Source of the DNA: Dickeya poaceiphila
GTDB lineage: Bacteria; Pseudomonadota; Gammaproteobacteria; Enterobacterales; Enterobacteriaceae
Direction: 5' to 3'
DNA length: 64,000 bases
NCBI RefSeq assembly: GCF_007858975.2
Contig: NZ_CP042220.2
Span: forward strand, 992,001 to 1,056,000
The first letter of the stretch is position 1, and every line of letters begins with the position of its first letter. Position numbers and translations under genes: made by a program. Shown here one piece after another: positions 19,372-26,479 of the stretch. The notes beneath the pieces were generated by a model that had not been told where the DNA came from, did not search any database, and saw only the letters and a list, made by a program, of their open reading frames with translations.

Positions 19372-20163
19372 ATGGCGGAACATATAGTGCAGCAAATTAG
19401 TCACTTTAATCAGCCCGGCTCTGAAGTCTCCGTCACCGGGGAGGTGCAGTGTGCAGATGCTGATTACTGGCACAGCTGCCACAGGCGGTACCGATTTCAA
19501 CCTATTTATCGCACTTCTGGTCGTTTGATGGGGATTGAGTTGCTGACCGCCGTTTTTCACCCATCCTGTCCGCAGAAATTTTTATCTCCTGAACATTACT
19601 TTGCCCGCCTTAGTGTTGAAGAGCGCCTCAATATCGTTATTGAACAGTTGCAGTTACTAAACCAATGGCATGACCGCTTTGTCCAGGATGAATTACGCGC
19701 CTCTGTTAATATTGATGGGCTGACTTTGCTGGCTTTGCAGGAAAACAGCAAGGCCAAAAAGCTGCTGACGACAATGCCCTGGCTGCGTTTCGAACTGGTT
19801 GAAAGTCTGGCGGTTTTGCCTCATGACACACTGGCGATGTTGCCCGAAGCCGGGTTGCTCTGGTTGGATGATTTCGGCTGTGGTATGGCGAATTTTTCCT
19901 CGTTATCACGGGTAAAATACGACTGTATCAAGATCGCCCGCGAGCTTTTCATCATGTTGCTTAATAGCAAAGAAGGTAGGCAGTTGTTTCCGTCACTGGT
20001 GACCCTGCTTGCCACTTACTGCAAGGATGTTGTAATTGAAGGGGTTGAGACTGAAGAAGAGTGGGATATCATCAGGCAATCTGATGCTTCCGCAGCACAG
20101 GGATATTTTTTGTCTATGCCTCAACCATTTGAAAATATGGAAGATCTTTGTTCCGAGTTGTAA
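19372..20163 (+). CDS. pdeH: EAL-domain c-di-GMP phosphodiesterase, PdeH (YhjH)-like
   Basis: A cytoplasmic stand-alone EAL domain, 263 residues, with no sensor or membrane part. It aligns along its whole length with my recollection of E. coli YhjH (MAEHIVQQIS~MIRQVIQRIS; WLRFELVE; ARELFVML). Catalytic features are present: Glu56 in the EAL position (GIELL), SVNIDG, FELVES, Asp166-Asp167 in WLDDFG, KIARELF, EGVE at 223-226, and AAQGYFL. It should therefore hydrolyse c-di-GMP. The FliA-type promoter just upstream ties it to motility. Its downstream neighbour is a c-di-GMP cyclase, an arrangement like ECA3271/ECA3270 in Pectobacterium atrosepticum. No good ribosome site precedes the ATG; the start rests on homology. 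Confidence 0.9.
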   Translation: MAEHIVQQISHFNQPGSEVSVTGEVQCADADYWHSCHRRYRFQPIYRTSGRLMGIELLTAVFHPSCPQKFLSPEHYFARLSVEERLNIVIEQLQLLNQWHDRFVQDELRASVNIDGLTLLALQENSKAKKLLTTMPWLRFELVESLAVLPHDTLAMLPEAGLLWLDDFGCGMANFSSLSRVKYDCIKIARELFIMLLNSKEGRQLFPSLVTLLATYCKDVVIEGVETEEEWDIIRQSDASAAQGYFLSMPQPFENMEDLCSEL

Positions 20164-20955
20164 TCATGCCTTCTTTATATGCCTGATATACCTGAATGAG
20201 CGCCTTTTTTCCTGTTTGTCGTGAAGTATTCTATTCCCCTCTGGAACCTGCCTTTGCTTCATCAACACCTTGAGGATAAAAGAAAAAATTCATATATCAT
20301 CAATATACGGCATAAAGCAAATGATTAGATTGCTATTTATAGATTTCTCATTCTTTATGCCTTGTTTTTTATATAAATATAGTGTTTTATGTGGTATGGA
20401 TTGCTTTTCCAGACTGGCAAAATCACGGTATTAGCTTAAAAAAGCAACAACCATAAGAAAAAGAACTGATCGATTTATAAGGTCCATAATAAATTGATTT
20501 ATAAAGATAAAAAAATAAATCTTTGCTGGTAACGATCAAAAAACAACTTGTGATAGTTATTTTTGATTAAAATAGTAGGACTTATCGGTATAATTGATTT
20601 GCTTACGAAAAATTGATAGTCAAAATACTGCGCTACGAAATCGGTAATAGAACCGTATAAAAATATTAGCCAGGCTTATGTCTATTACTATCATTAATAT
20701 AACTGATTAAGCTCATTCTCTTGATTCTATTATTTAGGTCTGCACACGGCGATATAATGGAGGCTTTATGCTGTCGTTTTTATGGCTATGAACCTGTCCT
20801 GCAGAGCTGGATAGTTTTTTCATTCATCCTTTCTACTCTCCGGAAATGTGCCAACCCTGAAAATCTATACAAGGGGAGTTATTACCGGGATTTTTCGTCT
20901 TCAGTGATGCGATTTGTTCGATCAGGACCGTTCCGGGCCTGAGGAGAGTGTTATT
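20164..20955 (+). other. AT-rich non-coding stretch between the PDE and the cyclase
   Basis: About 790 bases, much richer in A/T than its surroundings, with many stops in all frames. No convincing gene was found. A tiny ORF at 20768-20791 (MLSFLWL) has a GGAGG site 4 bases upstream and could be a leader peptide, but it is too short to judge. The composition suggests horizontally acquired or H-NS-bound regulatory DNA. Confidence 0.5.
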
Positions 20956-22470
20956 GTGTATGAAATTATAATAACTCTATTAATAGTGCTCTTAGGGATT
21001 TCTTCTGCCAGAAGCCGTAAATTTCAGGAAAAAGCCAACGCAGAACAAAAAAAGCAGGACTTCCTGAACATGGTGTTCTTTGCCGCCGAATACAGTCCAT
21101 CATCCATTATGATCGCTAATGAAAGCAGTGAGATTGTGTACGTAAACCGCCAGTTTACCGTTATGTCTGGTTATGAAGCGGAAGAGGTGATTGGCCGGAA
21201 AACGAATATATTAAGCTCTGGCATGACCAACGCCAGTGTGTATGAGGAACTATGGTCTACCTTGAATAAAGGTGAGATCTGGAACGGCGAGTTTGTTAAT
21301 CGTAAGAAAAACGGGCAGTTATATTGGGAAAAAGCCAGCATCGTCAAAATATATAATAAAGCCAGTGATGCCGTTCAGTTCGTTAGTATAAAAATGGATA
21401 TCACCGAGCGCAAGACGCAGGAGCATCATGACAACTCCTACAACCGTGCGCTGGAGTTACTGTCGAGCGGTGCGCCGCTGAAGGATATTCTGGATGCGAT
21501 TATCTTCAGTGTTGAGGAGAAGAATCCCGGCAGAATTGTCTGTTCCGTTCTGTTGGTTGACAAGGAAAATAAATGTCTGACCCTTGGCTCTGCTCCCAGC
21601 CTGCCGGGTTTTTACAAGAATGCTATCCACAACGTGAAGATTGCTGACGGTGCGGCTTCGTTTGGCTCTGCCGCCTATTCTGGCAAACGTGTTATCGCGG
21701 AAGATATTTCCACTCACCCCCATTGGACATTGTATAAAGGCCTGGCGTTGTATGCCGGGCTGCGTTCCTGCTGGTCTGAACCCATTTTTGGGCAGAACAA
21801 GGAAATTCTTGGGGTACTCAGTGTTTATCACCGCAAGGTCTATTCCCCGACAGAGGATGAAATTGCCTCTATTGAGAAATCTGCGCAACTGGTGTCGGTG
21901 GCTATCGAACGTTACCGTGCGATTGATATGCTGCGTCGTAGTGAAGAGCACTACCGGCAATTGGCCCATTACGATTCATTGACCTCGCTGGCCAATGGTT
22001 TGACATTTGCCGAGCAGATGGAGCAGGCTATCCAGTTATCCCGTCAGACAGGCAGGAAGATCGCGTTGATGTTCCTTGATCTGGATAAATTCAAGCAAAT
22101 TAATGATACCTTCGGCCATGCAACCGGGGATTTGCTGCTAAAAGAAGCAGCAGCGCGTATGCGAGGTGCAGTGCGTGAAACCGATACGGTTTATCGCCGC
22201 AGCGGTGATGAATTTATTATCCTGTTGCAAGGGATAAAAGAAGTCGAGAATCCGCTGTACGTCGCCGACAAGATCCACCATGCCCTCAACGAGCCTTTCT
22301 ATATTGAGGGCAAGAAATTAGATATCTCGTGCAGCATAGGTATTGCGCTGTATCCTGAACATGGAACGGATTCGCTGGCGTTAGCTATCAATGCTGATGC
22401 GGCGATGTATCAGGCGAAGGCGCTGGGACGCAGTCAAACTCAGATCTATCATGATCTGAATACTCACTAG
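20956..22470 (+). CDS. Membrane-anchored PAS-GAF-GGDEF diguanylate cyclase with SGDEF active site
   Basis: Predicted to make c-di-GMP from two GTP. One N-terminal membrane helix (residues ~3-16, IIITLLIVLLGIS), a PAS domain (~45-160, ending MDITERK), a GAF domain (~170-325) and a GGDEF domain (~340-500). The active-site motif is SGDEF (416-420), not GGDEF. The inhibitory I-site RETD (407-410) sits five residues before it, as in canonical enzymes. P. atrosepticum ECA3270, which lies in a similar locus, is an active cyclase with SGDEF, so activity is expected here. The GTG at 20956 is chosen because GAGGAG precedes it; a TTG at 20914 is an in-frame alternative. 504 residues. No partner gene within 700 bases upstream. 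Confidence 0.88.
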   Translation: MYEIIITLLIVLLGISSARSRKFQEKANAEQKKQDFLNMVFFAAEYSPSSIMIANESSEIVYVNRQFTVMSGYEAEEVIGRKTNILSSGMTNASVYEELWSTLNKGEIWNGEFVNRKKNGQLYWEKASIVKIYNKASDAVQFVSIKMDITERKTQEHHDNSYNRALELLSSGAPLKDILDAIIFSVEEKNPGRIVCSVLLVDKENKCLTLGSAPSLPGFYKNAIHNVKIADGAASFGSAAYSGKRVIAEDISTHPHWTLYKGLALYAGLRSCWSEPIFGQNKEILGVLSVYHRKVYSPTEDEIASIEKSAQLVSVAIERYRAIDMLRRSEEHYRQLAHYDSLTSLANGLTFAEQMEQAIQLSRQTGRKIALMFLDLDKFKQINDTFGHATGDLLLKEAAARMRGAVRETDTVYRRSGDEFIILLQGIKEVENPLYVADKIHHALNEPFYIEGKKLDISCSIGIALYPEHGTDSLALAINADAAMYQAKALGRSQTQIYHDLNTH

Positions 22471-22486: not shown

Positions 22487-23329
22487 TTATCGTTCCCGCA
22501 GCGCTTCTGTCCAGGCTTGCCGTATTGGTTTTAGCAAATAGCTAAGCAATGTTTTCCTGCCGGTAATCACATCAACATTGGCAATCATGCCGGGAAGAAT
22601 CAACTGTGGGTTGTCGTGAGTCCCCAGGTCGTTTTTCTCTGTGCGTAGCCGTATAAGGTAGAAGCTGTTACCTGCCTGATCGGTCATTACATCCTGACTG
22701 ATCTGATCGATATAACCTTTCAAGCTGCCAAATGTGGTGTAATCGTAAACGGCGAAAGTGATCATCGCATCCTGTCCAGGGCGCAAAAATGCTCTATCTT
22801 GTGGCTTTATACGCGCTTCAATCAGCAACTTGTCATCCAATGGGGCGATTTCCACCAGCGCACGGCCAGGAGAAATTTGCCCGGTAGTGGCATCGACAAG
22901 AATAGATTTGATAATACCCCGTACTGGCGCGGTGACCAGCGATAGCCTGTCCGCCGTATTTTCATTGGTATCAGGCGAGTGAGGCCGCTCACTATGCTCT
23001 AACTGCATCAGGGGATCACCTATGTTGACTATCTGCCCCTCGCGGATATGTAGCTTGCCCAGTTTACCTGCTTCCGGTGCCAGTACACTGTACTGAGGCG
23101 ATTGACTGAGCGTTTTCCCTGTCGCCGATACGACTTCATCCACGTTGGCAACCGCGGACCAGCCCATCAGAAAAACCACGAAGGCCAACATAGTCCAGAT
23201 CGATAACCGGATGAACATGGGTGTATCTTCCACCAGCGCCTGCCCGACATCCGGCAGCCCTTGCGACTCCTGATGGCGATGACCGAAGAAATATGTATTG
23301 ATAGAGCGAGCGAATTTAGCGAGAAGCAT
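22487..23329 (-). CDS. Type I secretion membrane fusion protein lacking the coiled-coil hairpin
   Basis: HlyD/LapC-like periplasmic adaptor. Seen in order: a cytoplasmic N-tail, one membrane helix (~40-60), the first lipoyl half (~78-111), a ~17-residue polar linker (112-128) and the second lipoyl half beginning VTAPVRGIIKS. A beta-barrel domain then runs to the family-typical end LLKPIRQAWTEALRER. HlyD-type proteins normally have a 100-200-residue alpha-helical hairpin where the linker is; here it is absent, so the protein is 280 residues rather than ~390-470. The hairpin usually contacts TolC, so either another protein bridges to the outer membrane or the system is impaired. The frame is intact. 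Overlaps the exporter gene by 14 bases and is co-transcribed with it. Confidence 0.88.
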   Translation of the reverse strand: MLLAKFARSINTYFFGHRHQESQGLPDVGQALVEDTPMFIRLSIWTMLAFVVFLMGWSAVANVDEVVSATGKTLSQSPQYSVLAPEAGKLGKLHIREGQIVNIGDPLMQLEHSERPHSPDTNENTADRLSLVTAPVRGIIKSILVDATTGQISPGRALVEIAPLDDKLLIEARIKPQDRAFLRPGQDAMITFAVYDYTTFGSLKGYIDQISQDVMTDQAGNSFYLIRLRTEKNDLGTHDNPQLILPGMIANVDVITGRKTLLSYLLKPIRQAWTEALRER

Positions 23330-25502
23330 TGATCTGTCCCTTCTTTAATGCGTCCAGTACGATGGCTTTGGGACCATCGGCGATAATACGTCCTTTGTCT
23401 ACGATAACGAGTCTATCTACCAGTGTCAGCATGGAAACCCGGTGTGTGACCAACAGCAGTGTTCTGTTGGCGAGAATGGCTTGTAGGGCTTGCTTAAAGC
23501 GGTCTTCACTGCTGTTGTCCATGGCGCTGGTCGGCTCGTCAAGCAGCAGGATAGGCGGGTCAAGCAGCAACGCACGGGCAATAGCGACGGCTTGTTTCTG
23601 ACCGCCCGACAAATGCATCCCTCGCTCACCAACCTGTAGGTTGTAACCATCCGGATGTAGTCGGGCGAAATCGTTGACGCCAGCGATATCTGCCACTCGC
23701 AGCATAGCGTCGTCTTCAACATAACGGGCACCGAAAATCAGGTTGTCCCGCAGCGTACCGCTAAACAGTTGAATATCCTGTGGCACATAACCGATGTGGT
23801 GGCGCAGGTCGGCGATGTCGAACTGACGTGCGTCAACACCGTCGATCAATAGATTACCGGTGGTTGGTTGGTAAAGGTTGACGATCAATTTTTCCAGTGA
23901 GCTTTTACCTGAGCCGGTACGACCAATAATGCCGACTTTTTCGCCAGCACGAATTGACAGATTAATATCAATCAGGGCGCGGTTTTTCTGCTCCGGATAG
24001 CTGAAAGTCACGTCGCAAAACTCAATGCTGCCCTGAATGCTTTCTCGTTTCAAAGGGGAGGGGTGATCGCCTCTCTCTTGCGGTAGCGCCATTAATTCAT
24101 GCGTTTCTTCCAGGGTTAACCGGGTCTGCAGGTAGCGGATAAACAGCTCGGACAGTGTTCCCAGCGTCATCAACACCCGGCTGTTAAGCAGATAACAGGC
24201 GAACAGCGAACCTGGCGTCAACTGCGCGCTCAGCAACAGATAGACCCCTACGACCATCATGACGACGCTGGCGAGATGCTGGCATGTTTGGGTCAGATGG
24301 ACGGCGAGGGCCGATAAGGTTTTCGCCCTTGAGCTGAGTCGGCTGATGTCACTGCTGATTTGTTCCCACTGACGCTGGCGTTCACCTTCGGCATTATGGA
24401 TTTTAATGGTGTCTAGTCCGCTCAGCGTTTCCGTCAGCAGTGCTTGTCGTTGTTCAGTTAGTCGGCGGGAATGCGTGTGCGCCGTCAATATAGGCTTTTG
24501 CAGGAGTACATTGATCACTAAAACCAGTAGCAACGTCAGCAAGGGCACCCAGAGCAGCGGACCTCCCAGTATGCCGAGTAAGATCAGCATCAGCAGCGTA
24601 AATGGGAAATCGAGCAATGTTCCCAGCGATAACGACGATAACGTGTCGTACAATGACTGAAGTTCCCGCACCCGATGAGCGACGGTGCCGATGCGTGCCG
24701 GAAAGACCGAGCGCATCATGCCCACCAGACGCTCGAATAAGGTGGCGGAAAGCAGAAGATCGGTCTTTTTCCCAGCAATATCCAGGCAAACACTGCGTAA
24801 TATCTTCATGATAAGCTCAAACAGCAGTGCGATGCCGAGGCCGGAAGCTAATACCCACAACGTATTTGTCGTTTGATTGGGGAGCACCCGATCATAGACC
24901 TGCATAACGAACAGCGGGATAAATAGCGCGATGATGTTGATCAACAGGCTGACGATGGCTGCATCCAGATACAGATTGCGTGATAGTTTCAACGTGTCGC
25001 GGAACCAGGCTTTACTTCGTGGCAGTAATGTCGCTGGCGATGCGTCGAAACGGGGGGCTGGCTGGGCAAACATGATTAACCCCAGATAGTTTTGCTGCAG
25101 CGTATTGTGATCAACCGTGATTTCGCCGCCTTCGGTTTCGCCGGTCATCAGACGCGCGTTACCGTCTGTTGTCCAACCCAGCAGGATAGCGGCACGGCCT
25201 TCGCGTAGTAACAACATTGCAGGTAGCGACATGGACGGAATGGCGTTTAACGAACGTTTAAGTATCCGGGCACGTAAACCTGCGCGTGCAGCAGCACGCG
25301 GCAGCAGGCTGGCAGGCAAACGTAGGTCTTCAAGCGGTAAGCCTGCGGTCAGCGTGGTACGGCTGGCTGGTTTTCCTTGTAATTGGCACAGGACCTGCAA
25401 GCTGTCGAGCAACGGGTCATCATGGCGGATACGAGGATCCTGATGTTGCGCAGAATGGTGCGGTTCTTCGCTGCCAGATGGCTGCTTATAGTGTGTATTC
25501 AT
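23316..25502 (-). CDS. Type I secretion ABC exporter (LapB-like, C39-like N-domain)
   Basis: Inner membrane ATPase/permease for protein export, 728 residues. Residues ~30-150 form a peptidase-C39-like domain in which the catalytic Cys position reads as DPLLD and the His position as GRAAIL. It therefore should not cut double-glycine leaders and fits exporters of RTX-type substrates with C-terminal signals. A six-helix membrane domain (~165-420) follows, then an ATPase with Walker A GRTGSGKSS (~residue 525), the Q loop YVPQD, signature LSGGQKQ, Walker B ILLLDEPTSAMD and the H loop VTHR. All ATPase motifs are intact. First gene of a two-gene operon with the membrane fusion protein. No substrate or outer-membrane channel is nearby. 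Confidence 0.92.
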   Translation of the reverse strand: MNTHYKQPSGSEEPHHSAQHQDPRIRHDDPLLDSLQVLCQLQGKPASRTTLTAGLPLEDLRLPASLLPRAAARAGLRARILKRSLNAIPSMSLPAMLLLREGRAAILLGWTTDGNARLMTGETEGGEITVDHNTLQQNYLGLIMFAQPAPRFDASPATLLPRSKAWFRDTLKLSRNLYLDAAIVSLLINIIALFIPLFVMQVYDRVLPNQTTNTLWVLASGLGIALLFELIMKILRSVCLDIAGKKTDLLLSATLFERLVGMMRSVFPARIGTVAHRVRELQSLYDTLSSLSLGTLLDFPFTLLMLILLGILGGPLLWVPLLTLLLVLVINVLLQKPILTAHTHSRRLTEQRQALLTETLSGLDTIKIHNAEGERQRQWEQISSDISRLSSRAKTLSALAVHLTQTCQHLASVVMMVVGVYLLLSAQLTPGSLFACYLLNSRVLMTLGTLSELFIRYLQTRLTLEETHELMALPQERGDHPSPLKRESIQGSIEFCDVTFSYPEQKNRALIDINLSIRAGEKVGIIGRTGSGKSSLEKLIVNLYQPTTGNLLIDGVDARQFDIADLRHHIGYVPQDIQLFSGTLRDNLIFGARYVEDDAMLRVADIAGVNDFARLHPDGYNLQVGERGMHLSGGQKQAVAIARALLLDPPILLLDEPTSAMDNSSEDRFKQALQAILANRTLLLVTHRVSMLTLVDRLVIVDKGRIIADGPKAIVLDALKKGQINASR

Positions 25503-26137
25503 GTCGCTATGCGTTCCTTAGCCACCAAGTGTTTGCTTACAGGTACATGTCATTTCAGGTGCATCAGTCAGAATAATGTCGGTTTTGAGGCCGCTTTATC
25601 GATCCACTTTGTTGAGAAACCTCGAATGGCGGTCAATATAACTGACATTTGGGTGCGACATAATACGCTTGTTAATCGGTATGCTGACAACTATTAGCTA
25701 TGAATCATCTGCTATAAAATGCGAATGGCGGACAGAGAATCTGTGTGGATAGCTTGCCCACCGATGGTGAAAATGCCATGCTGATAAATGGCCTAACGTG
25801 ATGTGCTGATGAGGGATCGTGAAGCGTGTTCTGGCCTCGCTGCAGGGAGTTCACTCGTGCGACGCCGCTGATTCCACCGGCAGACGACTATGCAATTATT
25901 GGCTTGCATCGCCTGCTGTGGGTGGAGACGATGGGTTTTCATGTCGGCATCTTGTGGTAGCTCATGTGTGAGATGTGTGCGTGGCTGCGGTTGCTAACCG
26001 CTGCCAAGTCGATGGTCACATGTGTCCTGATCCGCTTTGTCTGCCGACTTGCAGCACGGTATACAATAAAAACCCTAATCAGGAGCAAATTCACCCTGAC
26101 GGTGTGCTTGCTATATTGTTCATAAAAAGGGCTAGAT
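25503..26137. other. Intergenic region between the T1SS operon and the next gene
   Basis: 635 bases holding the divergent promoters of the exporter operon and the gene at 26138. No reading frame with family character was found on either strand. In related loci an outer-membrane channel or a large repeat adhesin lies near such an exporter; nothing of that kind remains here. Confidence 0.45.
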
Positions 26138-26479
26138 ATGTTTTACATTCTGCGTGACAGCAACGGCCATATTATCCGAGTAGAAGAATTACCGTTTCCA
26201 GAAATGAACGGCGAGTTGCCGGATGATTCTGTAGAAGCCACAGCATGGCTGAATAATCAGCAGGCCATTATGGCTAAGATTGAGCGGTTGCGCAGTAGCG
26301 ATCTGGAAATGGTACGTGTGCTGGAAGATCTGATTCAGGTATTGATCACCAAAGGGCAGATCAACATCACCGATTTCCCGGCCGCTGCACAGCTTAAACT
26401 CGTCAACCGGGCGCGGGATCGTGAAGAGTTGGGTAGTCTGGAGTCGTTGATCCGCGATGATGAGGACAAGCTCTTCTGA
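26138..26479 (+). CDS. Conserved small protein of unknown function
   Basis: 113 residues, acidic and probably cytoplasmic, with no signal peptide or membrane helix. The N-terminal part (FYILRDSNGHIIRVEELPFPEM) looks like a short beta unit. The rest looks helical (DLEMVRVLEDLIQVLITKGQINITDFPAAAQLKL). It resembles a family in gammaproteobacteria often mislabelled as a tryptophan synthase beta-like protein; it has no such activity by sequence. No operon partner: a strong terminator follows immediately. Confidence 0.8.
   Translation: MFYILRDSNGHIIRVEELPFPEMNGELPDDSVEATAWLNNQQAIMAKIERLRSSDLEMVRVLEDLIQVLITKGQINITDFPAAAQLKLVNRARDREELGSLESLIRDDEDKLF

What the first reader, a model, noticed from the sequence alone, without database searches (positions are those of the whole stretch)
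22487..23329. Membrane fusion protein with the coiled-coil hairpin replaced by a 17-residue linker
The two lipoyl halves and the beta-barrel are intact and in frame, but the long alpha hairpin that normally sits between the lipoyl halves (needed to reach TolC) is reduced to residues 112-128. This could be a natural hairpin-less adaptor for an exporter that delivers only to the periplasm or uses an unusual outer partner, or an in-frame deletion. An intact frame and overlap with the exporter gene argue against simple decay.
Basis: partly seen in the sequence, partly recalled or inferred. Interest (0 to 1): 0.72.

Follow-up and report, generated by a model that had tools for sequence, protein, structure and literature searches.

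The report
Genus-wide hairpin-less secretion adaptor in Dickeya
A bacterial genus keeps an exporter whose connecting arm to the outer membrane is missing, which suggests that a machine built to push an adhesin out of the cell was turned into something that works at the inner membrane only.

Summary
ORF 22487-23329(-) is a 280-residue HlyD/LapC-type adaptor with both lipoyl halves, barrel and C-terminal tail, but with an 18-residue polar linker where relatives have a ~176-residue hairpin. It is not strain-specific: all 9 genomes held of the genus (Dickeya) have the short form as best hit, and a profile search lists 19 short clusters, the 17 named ones all Dickeya. Relatives have a 453-454 aa adaptor at the same place with outer-membrane factor and ABC (14 of 14 syntenic genomes outside Dickeya and G022). 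Dickeya lacks adhesin, outer-membrane factor and hairpin there, yet ABC and adaptor are under purifying selection (omega 0.09 and 0.16), 2-3 fold relaxed against relatives. A sister genome, G022, keeps the ABC without adaptor. Best reading: an inner-membrane ABC/adaptor pair left from an adhesin secretion system, unable to dock TolC tip-to-tip, probably serving the periplasm; substrate unknown. Slow decay is the main rival. No report of a hairpin-less type I adaptor turned up in my searches; Borrelia BesA (RND) is the nearest precedent.

The parts
22487..23329 (-). hairpin-less HlyD/LapC-type adaptor, 280 aa
23147..23329 (-). N-terminal cytoplasmic segment and hydrophobic (probable membrane) helix, residues 1-61; boundary set by eye
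   Evidence: sequence; aligned to full-length relatives; omega 0.31 (1-38) and 0.17 (39-61)
22997..23146 (-). first lipoyl half, residues 62-111
   Evidence: Biotin_lipoyl match 81-110; omega 0.114
22943..22996 (-). 18-residue linker (112-129) in place of the coiled-coil hairpin
   Evidence: other species; 176-residue block in L041
22838..22942 (-). second lipoyl half, residues 130-164
   Evidence: omega 0.10
22556..22837 (-). beta-barrel region, residues 165-258
   Evidence: HlyD_3 132-247; omega 0.119
22490..22555 (-). C-terminal tail, residues 259-280, the segment with the lowest omega
   Evidence: omega 0.075
23316..25502 (-). LssB/LapB-type ABC exporter, 728 aa; Walker A, LSGGQ, Walker B and H-loop present in the 9 Dickeya rows of the alignment
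   Evidence: TIGR03375 869.8 bits; alignment
25503..26137 (.). stretch where outer-membrane factor and giant adhesin stand in sister genera; no remnant found
20914..22470 (+). PAS-GAF-GGDEF protein with SGDEF motif, convergent with the adaptor (16 bp apart)
   Evidence: kept in the full loci
19372..20163 (+). EAL protein of the same locus
26138..26479 (+). 113-aa conserved protein; its counterpart flanks the adhesin gene in L178 and L183

Best explanation
The ORF is the adaptor of a former adhesin type I secretion system. Shown: Dickeya and the sister genome G022 lack the adhesin and the outer-membrane factor at a locus where the 14 other syntenic genomes have the outer-membrane factor and a full-length adaptor; in Dickeya the adaptor has a 15-20 residue polar linker in place of the hairpin; ABC and adaptor are intact and selected across the genus. 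Inferred: one ancestral loss of adhesin and outer-membrane factor, then hairpin loss in frame; the adaptor still folds as barrel plus closed lipoyl domain and still docks on the ABC, but cannot reach TolC tip-to-tip, so the pair works as an inner-membrane unit, most likely exporting an unidentified substrate into the periplasm.
For: Short form in 9 of 9 genomes of the genus and in 19 clusters (17 named, all Dickeya; 152 contigs by the table); the 9 short forms are one clade (support 100). Full-length adaptor at the syntenic place in 14 of 14 other genomes of 6 genera. Omega over 9 species 0.156 for the adaptor (lnL -4926.5 against -5249.0 at omega 1) and 0.090 for the ABC (-11852.8 against -13167.2); four close pairs 0.07-0.18 for the adaptor. 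Lowest omega in the tail (0.075) and the lipoyl and barrel parts (0.10-0.12). ATPase motifs kept. No compensating insert in the ABC (726-732 aa against 728-746). No LapE-type outer-membrane factor (best hit per genome 22-24% identity) and no second LapC-type adaptor in 9 genomes. PF00353 (RTX) matches in the 9 genomes all lie within about 10 kb of the PrtE-like adaptor, by coordinates.
Against: No substrate, expression or localisation evidence. Every region is relaxed 2.4-4.6 fold against the full-length adaptors; 64 of 172 sites invariant in 16 full-length adaptors are also invariant in the 9 short ones. The N-terminal segment, which HlyD uses towards substrate and ABC, is weakly constrained (omega 0.31). 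Wider pairs with the window reach omega 0.19-0.21. G022 has no adaptor. One D. oryzae entry is truncated by an apparent frameshift (P0250). Fold not modelled.
Confidence: 0.55

Rival explanations
1. Slow decay: the locus lost its job with the adhesin, and ABC and hairpin-less adaptor are relics under weak residual constraint on the way out.
For: Adhesin, outer-membrane factor and hairpin all absent; G022 has no adaptor and a long ABC branch (0.49); omega of adaptor and ABC 2-3 times that of full loci while EAL (0.068 against 0.062) is not relaxed and GGDEF (0.009 against 0.032) is tighter; one truncated D. oryzae copy.
Against: No stop inside in 9 of 9 species. At the synonymous divergence of three comparisons with the window (dS 0.82, 0.96 and saturated, the last set to 2) a simple model of neutral point mutation gave 9.8, 10.3 and 12.3 stops on average and 0 of 500 open runs each. 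Close pairs still at omega 0.07-0.18; omega 1 rejected by 323 and 1314 log units.
Confidence: 0.25
2. BesABC-like conduit: the adaptor recruits TolC or another duct through its lipoyl tips or a third protein, so that export out of the cell continues without a hairpin.
For: BesA of Borrelia lacks the hairpin (9-residue loop) and is still held to work in a three-part pump (passages of PMC3807786 and PMC4446572). The 9 Dickeya genomes hold several TolC-family proteins.
Against: In BesABC the RND transporter may itself meet the duct, whereas canonical ABC transporters lack periplasmic protrusions (passages of PMC4446572). The locus's own outer-membrane factor is absent.
Confidence: 0.13
3. Regulatory or structural use: ABC and adaptor no longer transport a protein but act as an ATPase-linked sensor or lipid/peptide flippase tied to the neighbouring c-di-GMP enzymes.
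For: Linkage to GGDEF/EAL in 9 of 9 Dickeya; those enzymes are active in D. zeae EC1 and set swimming (passages of PMC7733949; identity with W909_14945/14950 inferred from the SGDEF motif and adjacency, not compared by sequence).
Against: The linkage is inherited from the adhesin locus and needs no new function; no direct evidence.
Confidence: 0.07

Closest known systems
LapC/HlyD-type adaptor of the Pectobacterium multi-repeat adhesin (MRP) type I system (ECA3266 locus)
   Same: Same gene order of ABC, adaptor, GGDEF and EAL in Pectobacterium loci; lipoyl halves, barrel and tail alignable. The link of MRP with ECA3270/3271, and the SGDEF motif of ECA3270, were read in passages of PMC6584795, PMC6963963 and PMC7733949.
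   Different: Dickeya lacks the ~176-residue hairpin, the outer-membrane factor and the adhesin.
BesA of Borrelia burgdorferi (PDB 4KKS-4KKU)
   Same: Adaptor without hairpin, short loop between lipoyl halves (9 residues, passage of PMC3807786).
   Different: RND pump, lipid-anchored, with an outer-membrane factor BesC; here an ABC type I adaptor with an 18-residue linker whose relatives with hairpin stand at the same genomic place.
HlyD in the HlyB/HlyD inner-membrane complex (PDB 8dck, 7sgr; identity of these entries recalled)
   Same: Best solved relative by sequence, profile positions 120-281, E 1e-31.
   Different: HlyD has the hairpin and works with TolC (recalled).
PrtE-like adaptor of Dickeya
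   Same: The other type I adaptor found in all 9 genomes (name inferred from RTX proteins beside it).
   Different: Full length (449-461 codons), 27-29% identity to the L041 adaptor.

Membership tests
HlyD/LapC-type T1SS adaptor (TIGR01843) | profile score above curated cut-off | tested here: met
   220.1 bits against 208.65, in two stretches; the full-length L041 adaptor scores 445.1 in one
HlyD/LapC-type T1SS adaptor (TIGR01843) | two lipoyl halves and beta-barrel | tested here: met
HlyD/LapC-type T1SS adaptor (TIGR01843) | long coiled-coil hairpin between the lipoyl halves (TolC contact) | tested here: not met
   176-residue block absent
HlyD/LapC-type T1SS adaptor (TIGR01843) | overlapping or adjacent T1SS ABC gene | tested here: met
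   TIGR03375 869.8 bits; 14-nt overlap
complete type I secretion system | cognate outer-membrane factor | tested here: not met
   absent from the locus; best hit per genome 22-24% identity; a general TolC could serve
complete type I secretion system | substrate in the locus or recognisable elsewhere | tested here: inconclusive
   no adhesin N-terminus match in 9 genomes, but no positive control in that call; RTX only near the PrtE-like adaptor
BesA-type hairpin-less adaptors | short loop instead of hairpin | tested here: met
   18 residues against 9
BesA-type hairpin-less adaptors | partner RND transporter and own outer-membrane factor | tested here: not met
   ABC partner, no outer-membrane factor in the locus
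LapADG-type adhesin control | LapG protease (PF06035) | tested here: not met
   0 of 9 Dickeya; 10 of all 38 genomes searched. The Pectobacterium-like genomes with the full locus were not in that set, so this is not tied to the loss of the adhesin

The most novel reading that the evidence does not exclude
A type I secretion system has been converted into a two-part inner-membrane exporter by loss of the part of its adaptor that docks on TolC, and this reduced machine has been kept for the lifetime of a genus; the lone ABC of the sister genome G022 is a further step on the same path, so the series full system, hairpin-less pair, lone ABC shows how a trans-envelope machine is cut down to a periplasm-directed one.
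Probability: 0.45. Interest if true: 0.75.

Novelty: new variant of a known kind. Interest (0 to 1): 0.6.

Why it matters
The hairpin is taken to be the part that recruits and opens the outer-membrane duct. A natural, long-kept adaptor without it, with full-length relatives at the same place in sister genera, lets one ask what the lipoyl and barrel parts do on their own on an ABC exporter, and whether type I machines can serve the periplasm. Hairpin-less assemblies such as BesA are called perhaps the biggest challenge to the tip-to-tip model (passage of PMC4446572); this would be a counterpart in the ABC class, in a genus that can be grown and mutated.

Tried and rejected
Assembly collapse or strain-specific deletion: rejected, 9 of 9 genomes, one per species.

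Of these I opened three: P0183 and P0200 are pieces of hairpin-bearing adaptors, P0250 is the truncated D. oryzae copy. Two short frames from other genomes (G431 308, G036 283 codons) were fetched; by eye both carry hairpin-like sequence, and the G431 frame is cut by a contig end. 78 of 80 named loci have a 435-470 aa adaptor; L123 is frame-broken, L140 ends at the contig edge.

A small conserved substrate gene between ABC and the 113-aa gene: no frame is shared by all 9; a frame of about 35-50 codons in a block shared by other Dickeya is absent from the window (judged by eye). Remnants of adhesin or outer-membrane factor there: none above chance.

A published phenotype for the gene: PMC10169776 (outline with abstract, passages and one section seen) reports phage-resistant D. 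solani with a broken hlyD (A4U42_17720), labelled prtE by its authors, although protease production was kept. Its distance from the mutated tuf (2.44 or 2.48 Mb) is nearer to that of the PrtE-like adaptor in G004 (2.27 or 2.76 Mb from one tuf) than to the short adaptor's (0.81 and 1.57 Mb from the two), assuming synteny. Not counted as evidence.

Omega caveats: MG+F3X4 in iqtree2 with kappa left at 1; gapped codons dropped (9 of 280 residues in the Dickeya set); dS saturated for the deepest pair; acpS had 8 of 9 sequences. The adaptor tree leaves the place of Dickeya among its relatives unresolved (supports 27-44).

Full report
What is there. ORF 22487-23329(-) encodes 280 residues and begins inside the ABC gene 23316-25502(-). 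Pfam and NCBIfam place it with HlyD-type adaptors; the ABC scores 869.8 bits to TIGR03375 (LssB type). Alignment with full-length relatives shows lipoyl half A, a linker (residues 112-129), lipoyl half B, the barrel and the tail; the coiled-coil block is missing. In the relative L041 the missing block is 176 residues. Linkers in the 8 other Dickeya genomes are 15-20 residues, polar, with little sequence conservation.

Who has it. The window's genome and all 8 same-genus genomes have a short frame (279-288 codons, counted from the first possible start) as best hit; the 8 others are 52-73% identical to the window. Names in the protein database show the genus to be Dickeya, among them D. solani, D. 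fangzhongdai, D. dianthicola, D. dadantii, D. zeae, D. chrysanthemi, D. undicola and D. lacustris. Of 120 listed profile hits (of 4537), 19 are short (274-282 aa): 17 carry a name, always Dickeya, and two carry none (P0001, P0015). The remaining 101 are 444-457 aa. By the table the 19 clusters stand for 152 contigs. One further entry (P0250, D. oryzae) is cut by an apparent frameshift.

The ancestral locus. With the conserved GGDEF neighbour as probe, 19 of 295 genomes of the family match at 1e-150: 4 Dickeya, G022, and 14 others in 6 genera. All 14 have outer-membrane factor (449-458 aa), ABC and full-length adaptor (453-454 aa) next to GGDEF and EAL. A giant divergent ORF stands upstream of the outer-membrane factor in 10 of the 13 stretches; the other three hold under 2.7 kb on that side, too little for the 780-residue listing threshold; L041 shows 405 residues with an Ig-like match. 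Named loci of Pectobacterium aroidearum, P. zantedeschiae, Brenneria salicis and Lonsdalea quercina have outer-membrane factor, ABC, full-length adaptor, GGDEF and EAL in the same order; the Lonsdalea contig is the one of G251 by its length, so the two sets are not independent. In L178 and L183 the 113-aa gene stands at the far side of the giant ORF. In Dickeya the same 113-aa gene sits directly upstream of the ABC, so what lies between them in relatives is gone; no remnant was found. I take this to be the counterpart of the P. atrosepticum MRP locus described in passages of PMC6584795 and PMC6963963; the original 2011 paper was not seen.

A further reduced relative. G022, whose GGDEF is 92% identical, keeps the 113-aa gene, an intact 727-aa ABC with its ATPase motifs, GGDEF and EAL, but has no adaptor there and no adaptor match in its genome. 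G022 is unnamed; Musicola is my guess. The ABC tree joins G022 and Dickeya with support 100, with a long G022 branch. A 44-bp block upstream of the ABC matches between G022 and 6 of 9 Dickeya above the best of 100 shuffles (30.1-35.6 bits against 25.6); a seventh only equals that best, and the window and G002 do not show it. I infer one ancestral loss of adhesin and outer-membrane factor, then hairpin loss in Dickeya (or earlier) and full adaptor loss in G022.

Selection. Over 9 Dickeya species omega is 0.156 for the adaptor and 0.090 for the ABC; omega 1 is rejected by 323 and 1314 log units. Neighbours: rnc 0.008, era 0.016, recO 0.036, pdxJ 0.034, acpS 0.044 (8 sequences), lepB 0.032, EAL 0.068, GGDEF 0.009, 113-aa 0.058, murQ 0.068, tadA 0.051, mltF 0.053. 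By region: N-terminal 0.31, membrane helix 0.17, lipoyl A 0.114, linker 0.27 (14 codons), lipoyl B 0.10, barrel 0.119, tail 0.075. In 16 full-length loci the adaptor has 0.050 (hairpin 0.058) and the ABC 0.043; EAL 0.062 and GGDEF 0.032 there. So adaptor and ABC are relaxed 2-3 fold in Dickeya, while EAL is about unchanged and GGDEF is tighter. Close pairs give 0.071, 0.085, 0.095 and 0.178 for the adaptor; wider pairs with the window 0.19 and 0.21. So constraint continues at the tips.

What is missing. No LapE-type outer-membrane factor (best hit per genome 22-24% identity) and no second LapC-type adaptor were found in 9 Dickeya; the next adaptor is PrtE-like at 27-29%, plus one 476-codon adaptor in G005 at 27%. 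LapG (PF06035) rings in 0 of 9 Dickeya. RTX matches in all 9 lie within about 10 kb of the PrtE-like adaptor. The adhesin N-terminus gave no match in 9 genomes, without a positive control in that call.

Mechanism. A hairpin-less adaptor cannot make the tip-to-tip contact with TolC that the hairpin makes (passages of PMC4446572 and PMC3807786). The conserved tail and the kept ATPase motifs point to an active ABC/adaptor pair (inference). With no cognate duct and no extra domain in the ABC, delivery into the periplasm is the simplest use. Decay is the main rival and is not excluded by the relaxed rates, but it fits poorly with intact frames at synonymous divergence of 0.8 and more. A BesABC-like direct contact is possible.

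Novelty. In the listings and passages I saw from searches of the held library there is no report of a hairpin-less type I adaptor or of this Dickeya gene; subscription papers are mostly missing there. BesA and, by its authors, other spirochaete and rare proteobacterial (Legionella) sequences lack hairpins (passage); the class to which the Legionella sequence belongs was not checked.

Noticed in passing
window 26138-26479 (+): 113-aa protein without Pfam or NCBIfam match; relatives at about 49-53% identity also stand in loci with this type of ABC and adaptor elsewhere (L039 16535-16876, L043 4763-5104, L123 2512-2853), so it may belong to the adhesin system.
   Followed up: partly
L170 13415-15598: G022 keeps an intact type I ABC exporter with no adaptor gene beside it and no adaptor match in its genome at the search's sensitivity.
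   Followed up: partly
window 25503-26137: The window's species lacks a stretch of roughly 150 bp upstream of the ABC that other Dickeya share by alignment, including a frame of about 35-50 codons in several of them; a 44-bp part is also in G022.
   Followed up: partly
window about 20721-20942 (+): A 73-aa frame overlapping the start of the GGDEF gene is much alike across Dickeya and different in L041; the start of the GGDEF gene may be mis-set, or there is a leader peptide.
   Followed up: no
window 20914-22470: The SGDEF protein has omega 0.009 in Dickeya, lower than in relatives with the full locus (0.032).
   Followed up: no
G005:C7:920049-921365: One Dickeya genome carries an additional 476-codon type I adaptor not listed for the other eight.
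   Followed up: no
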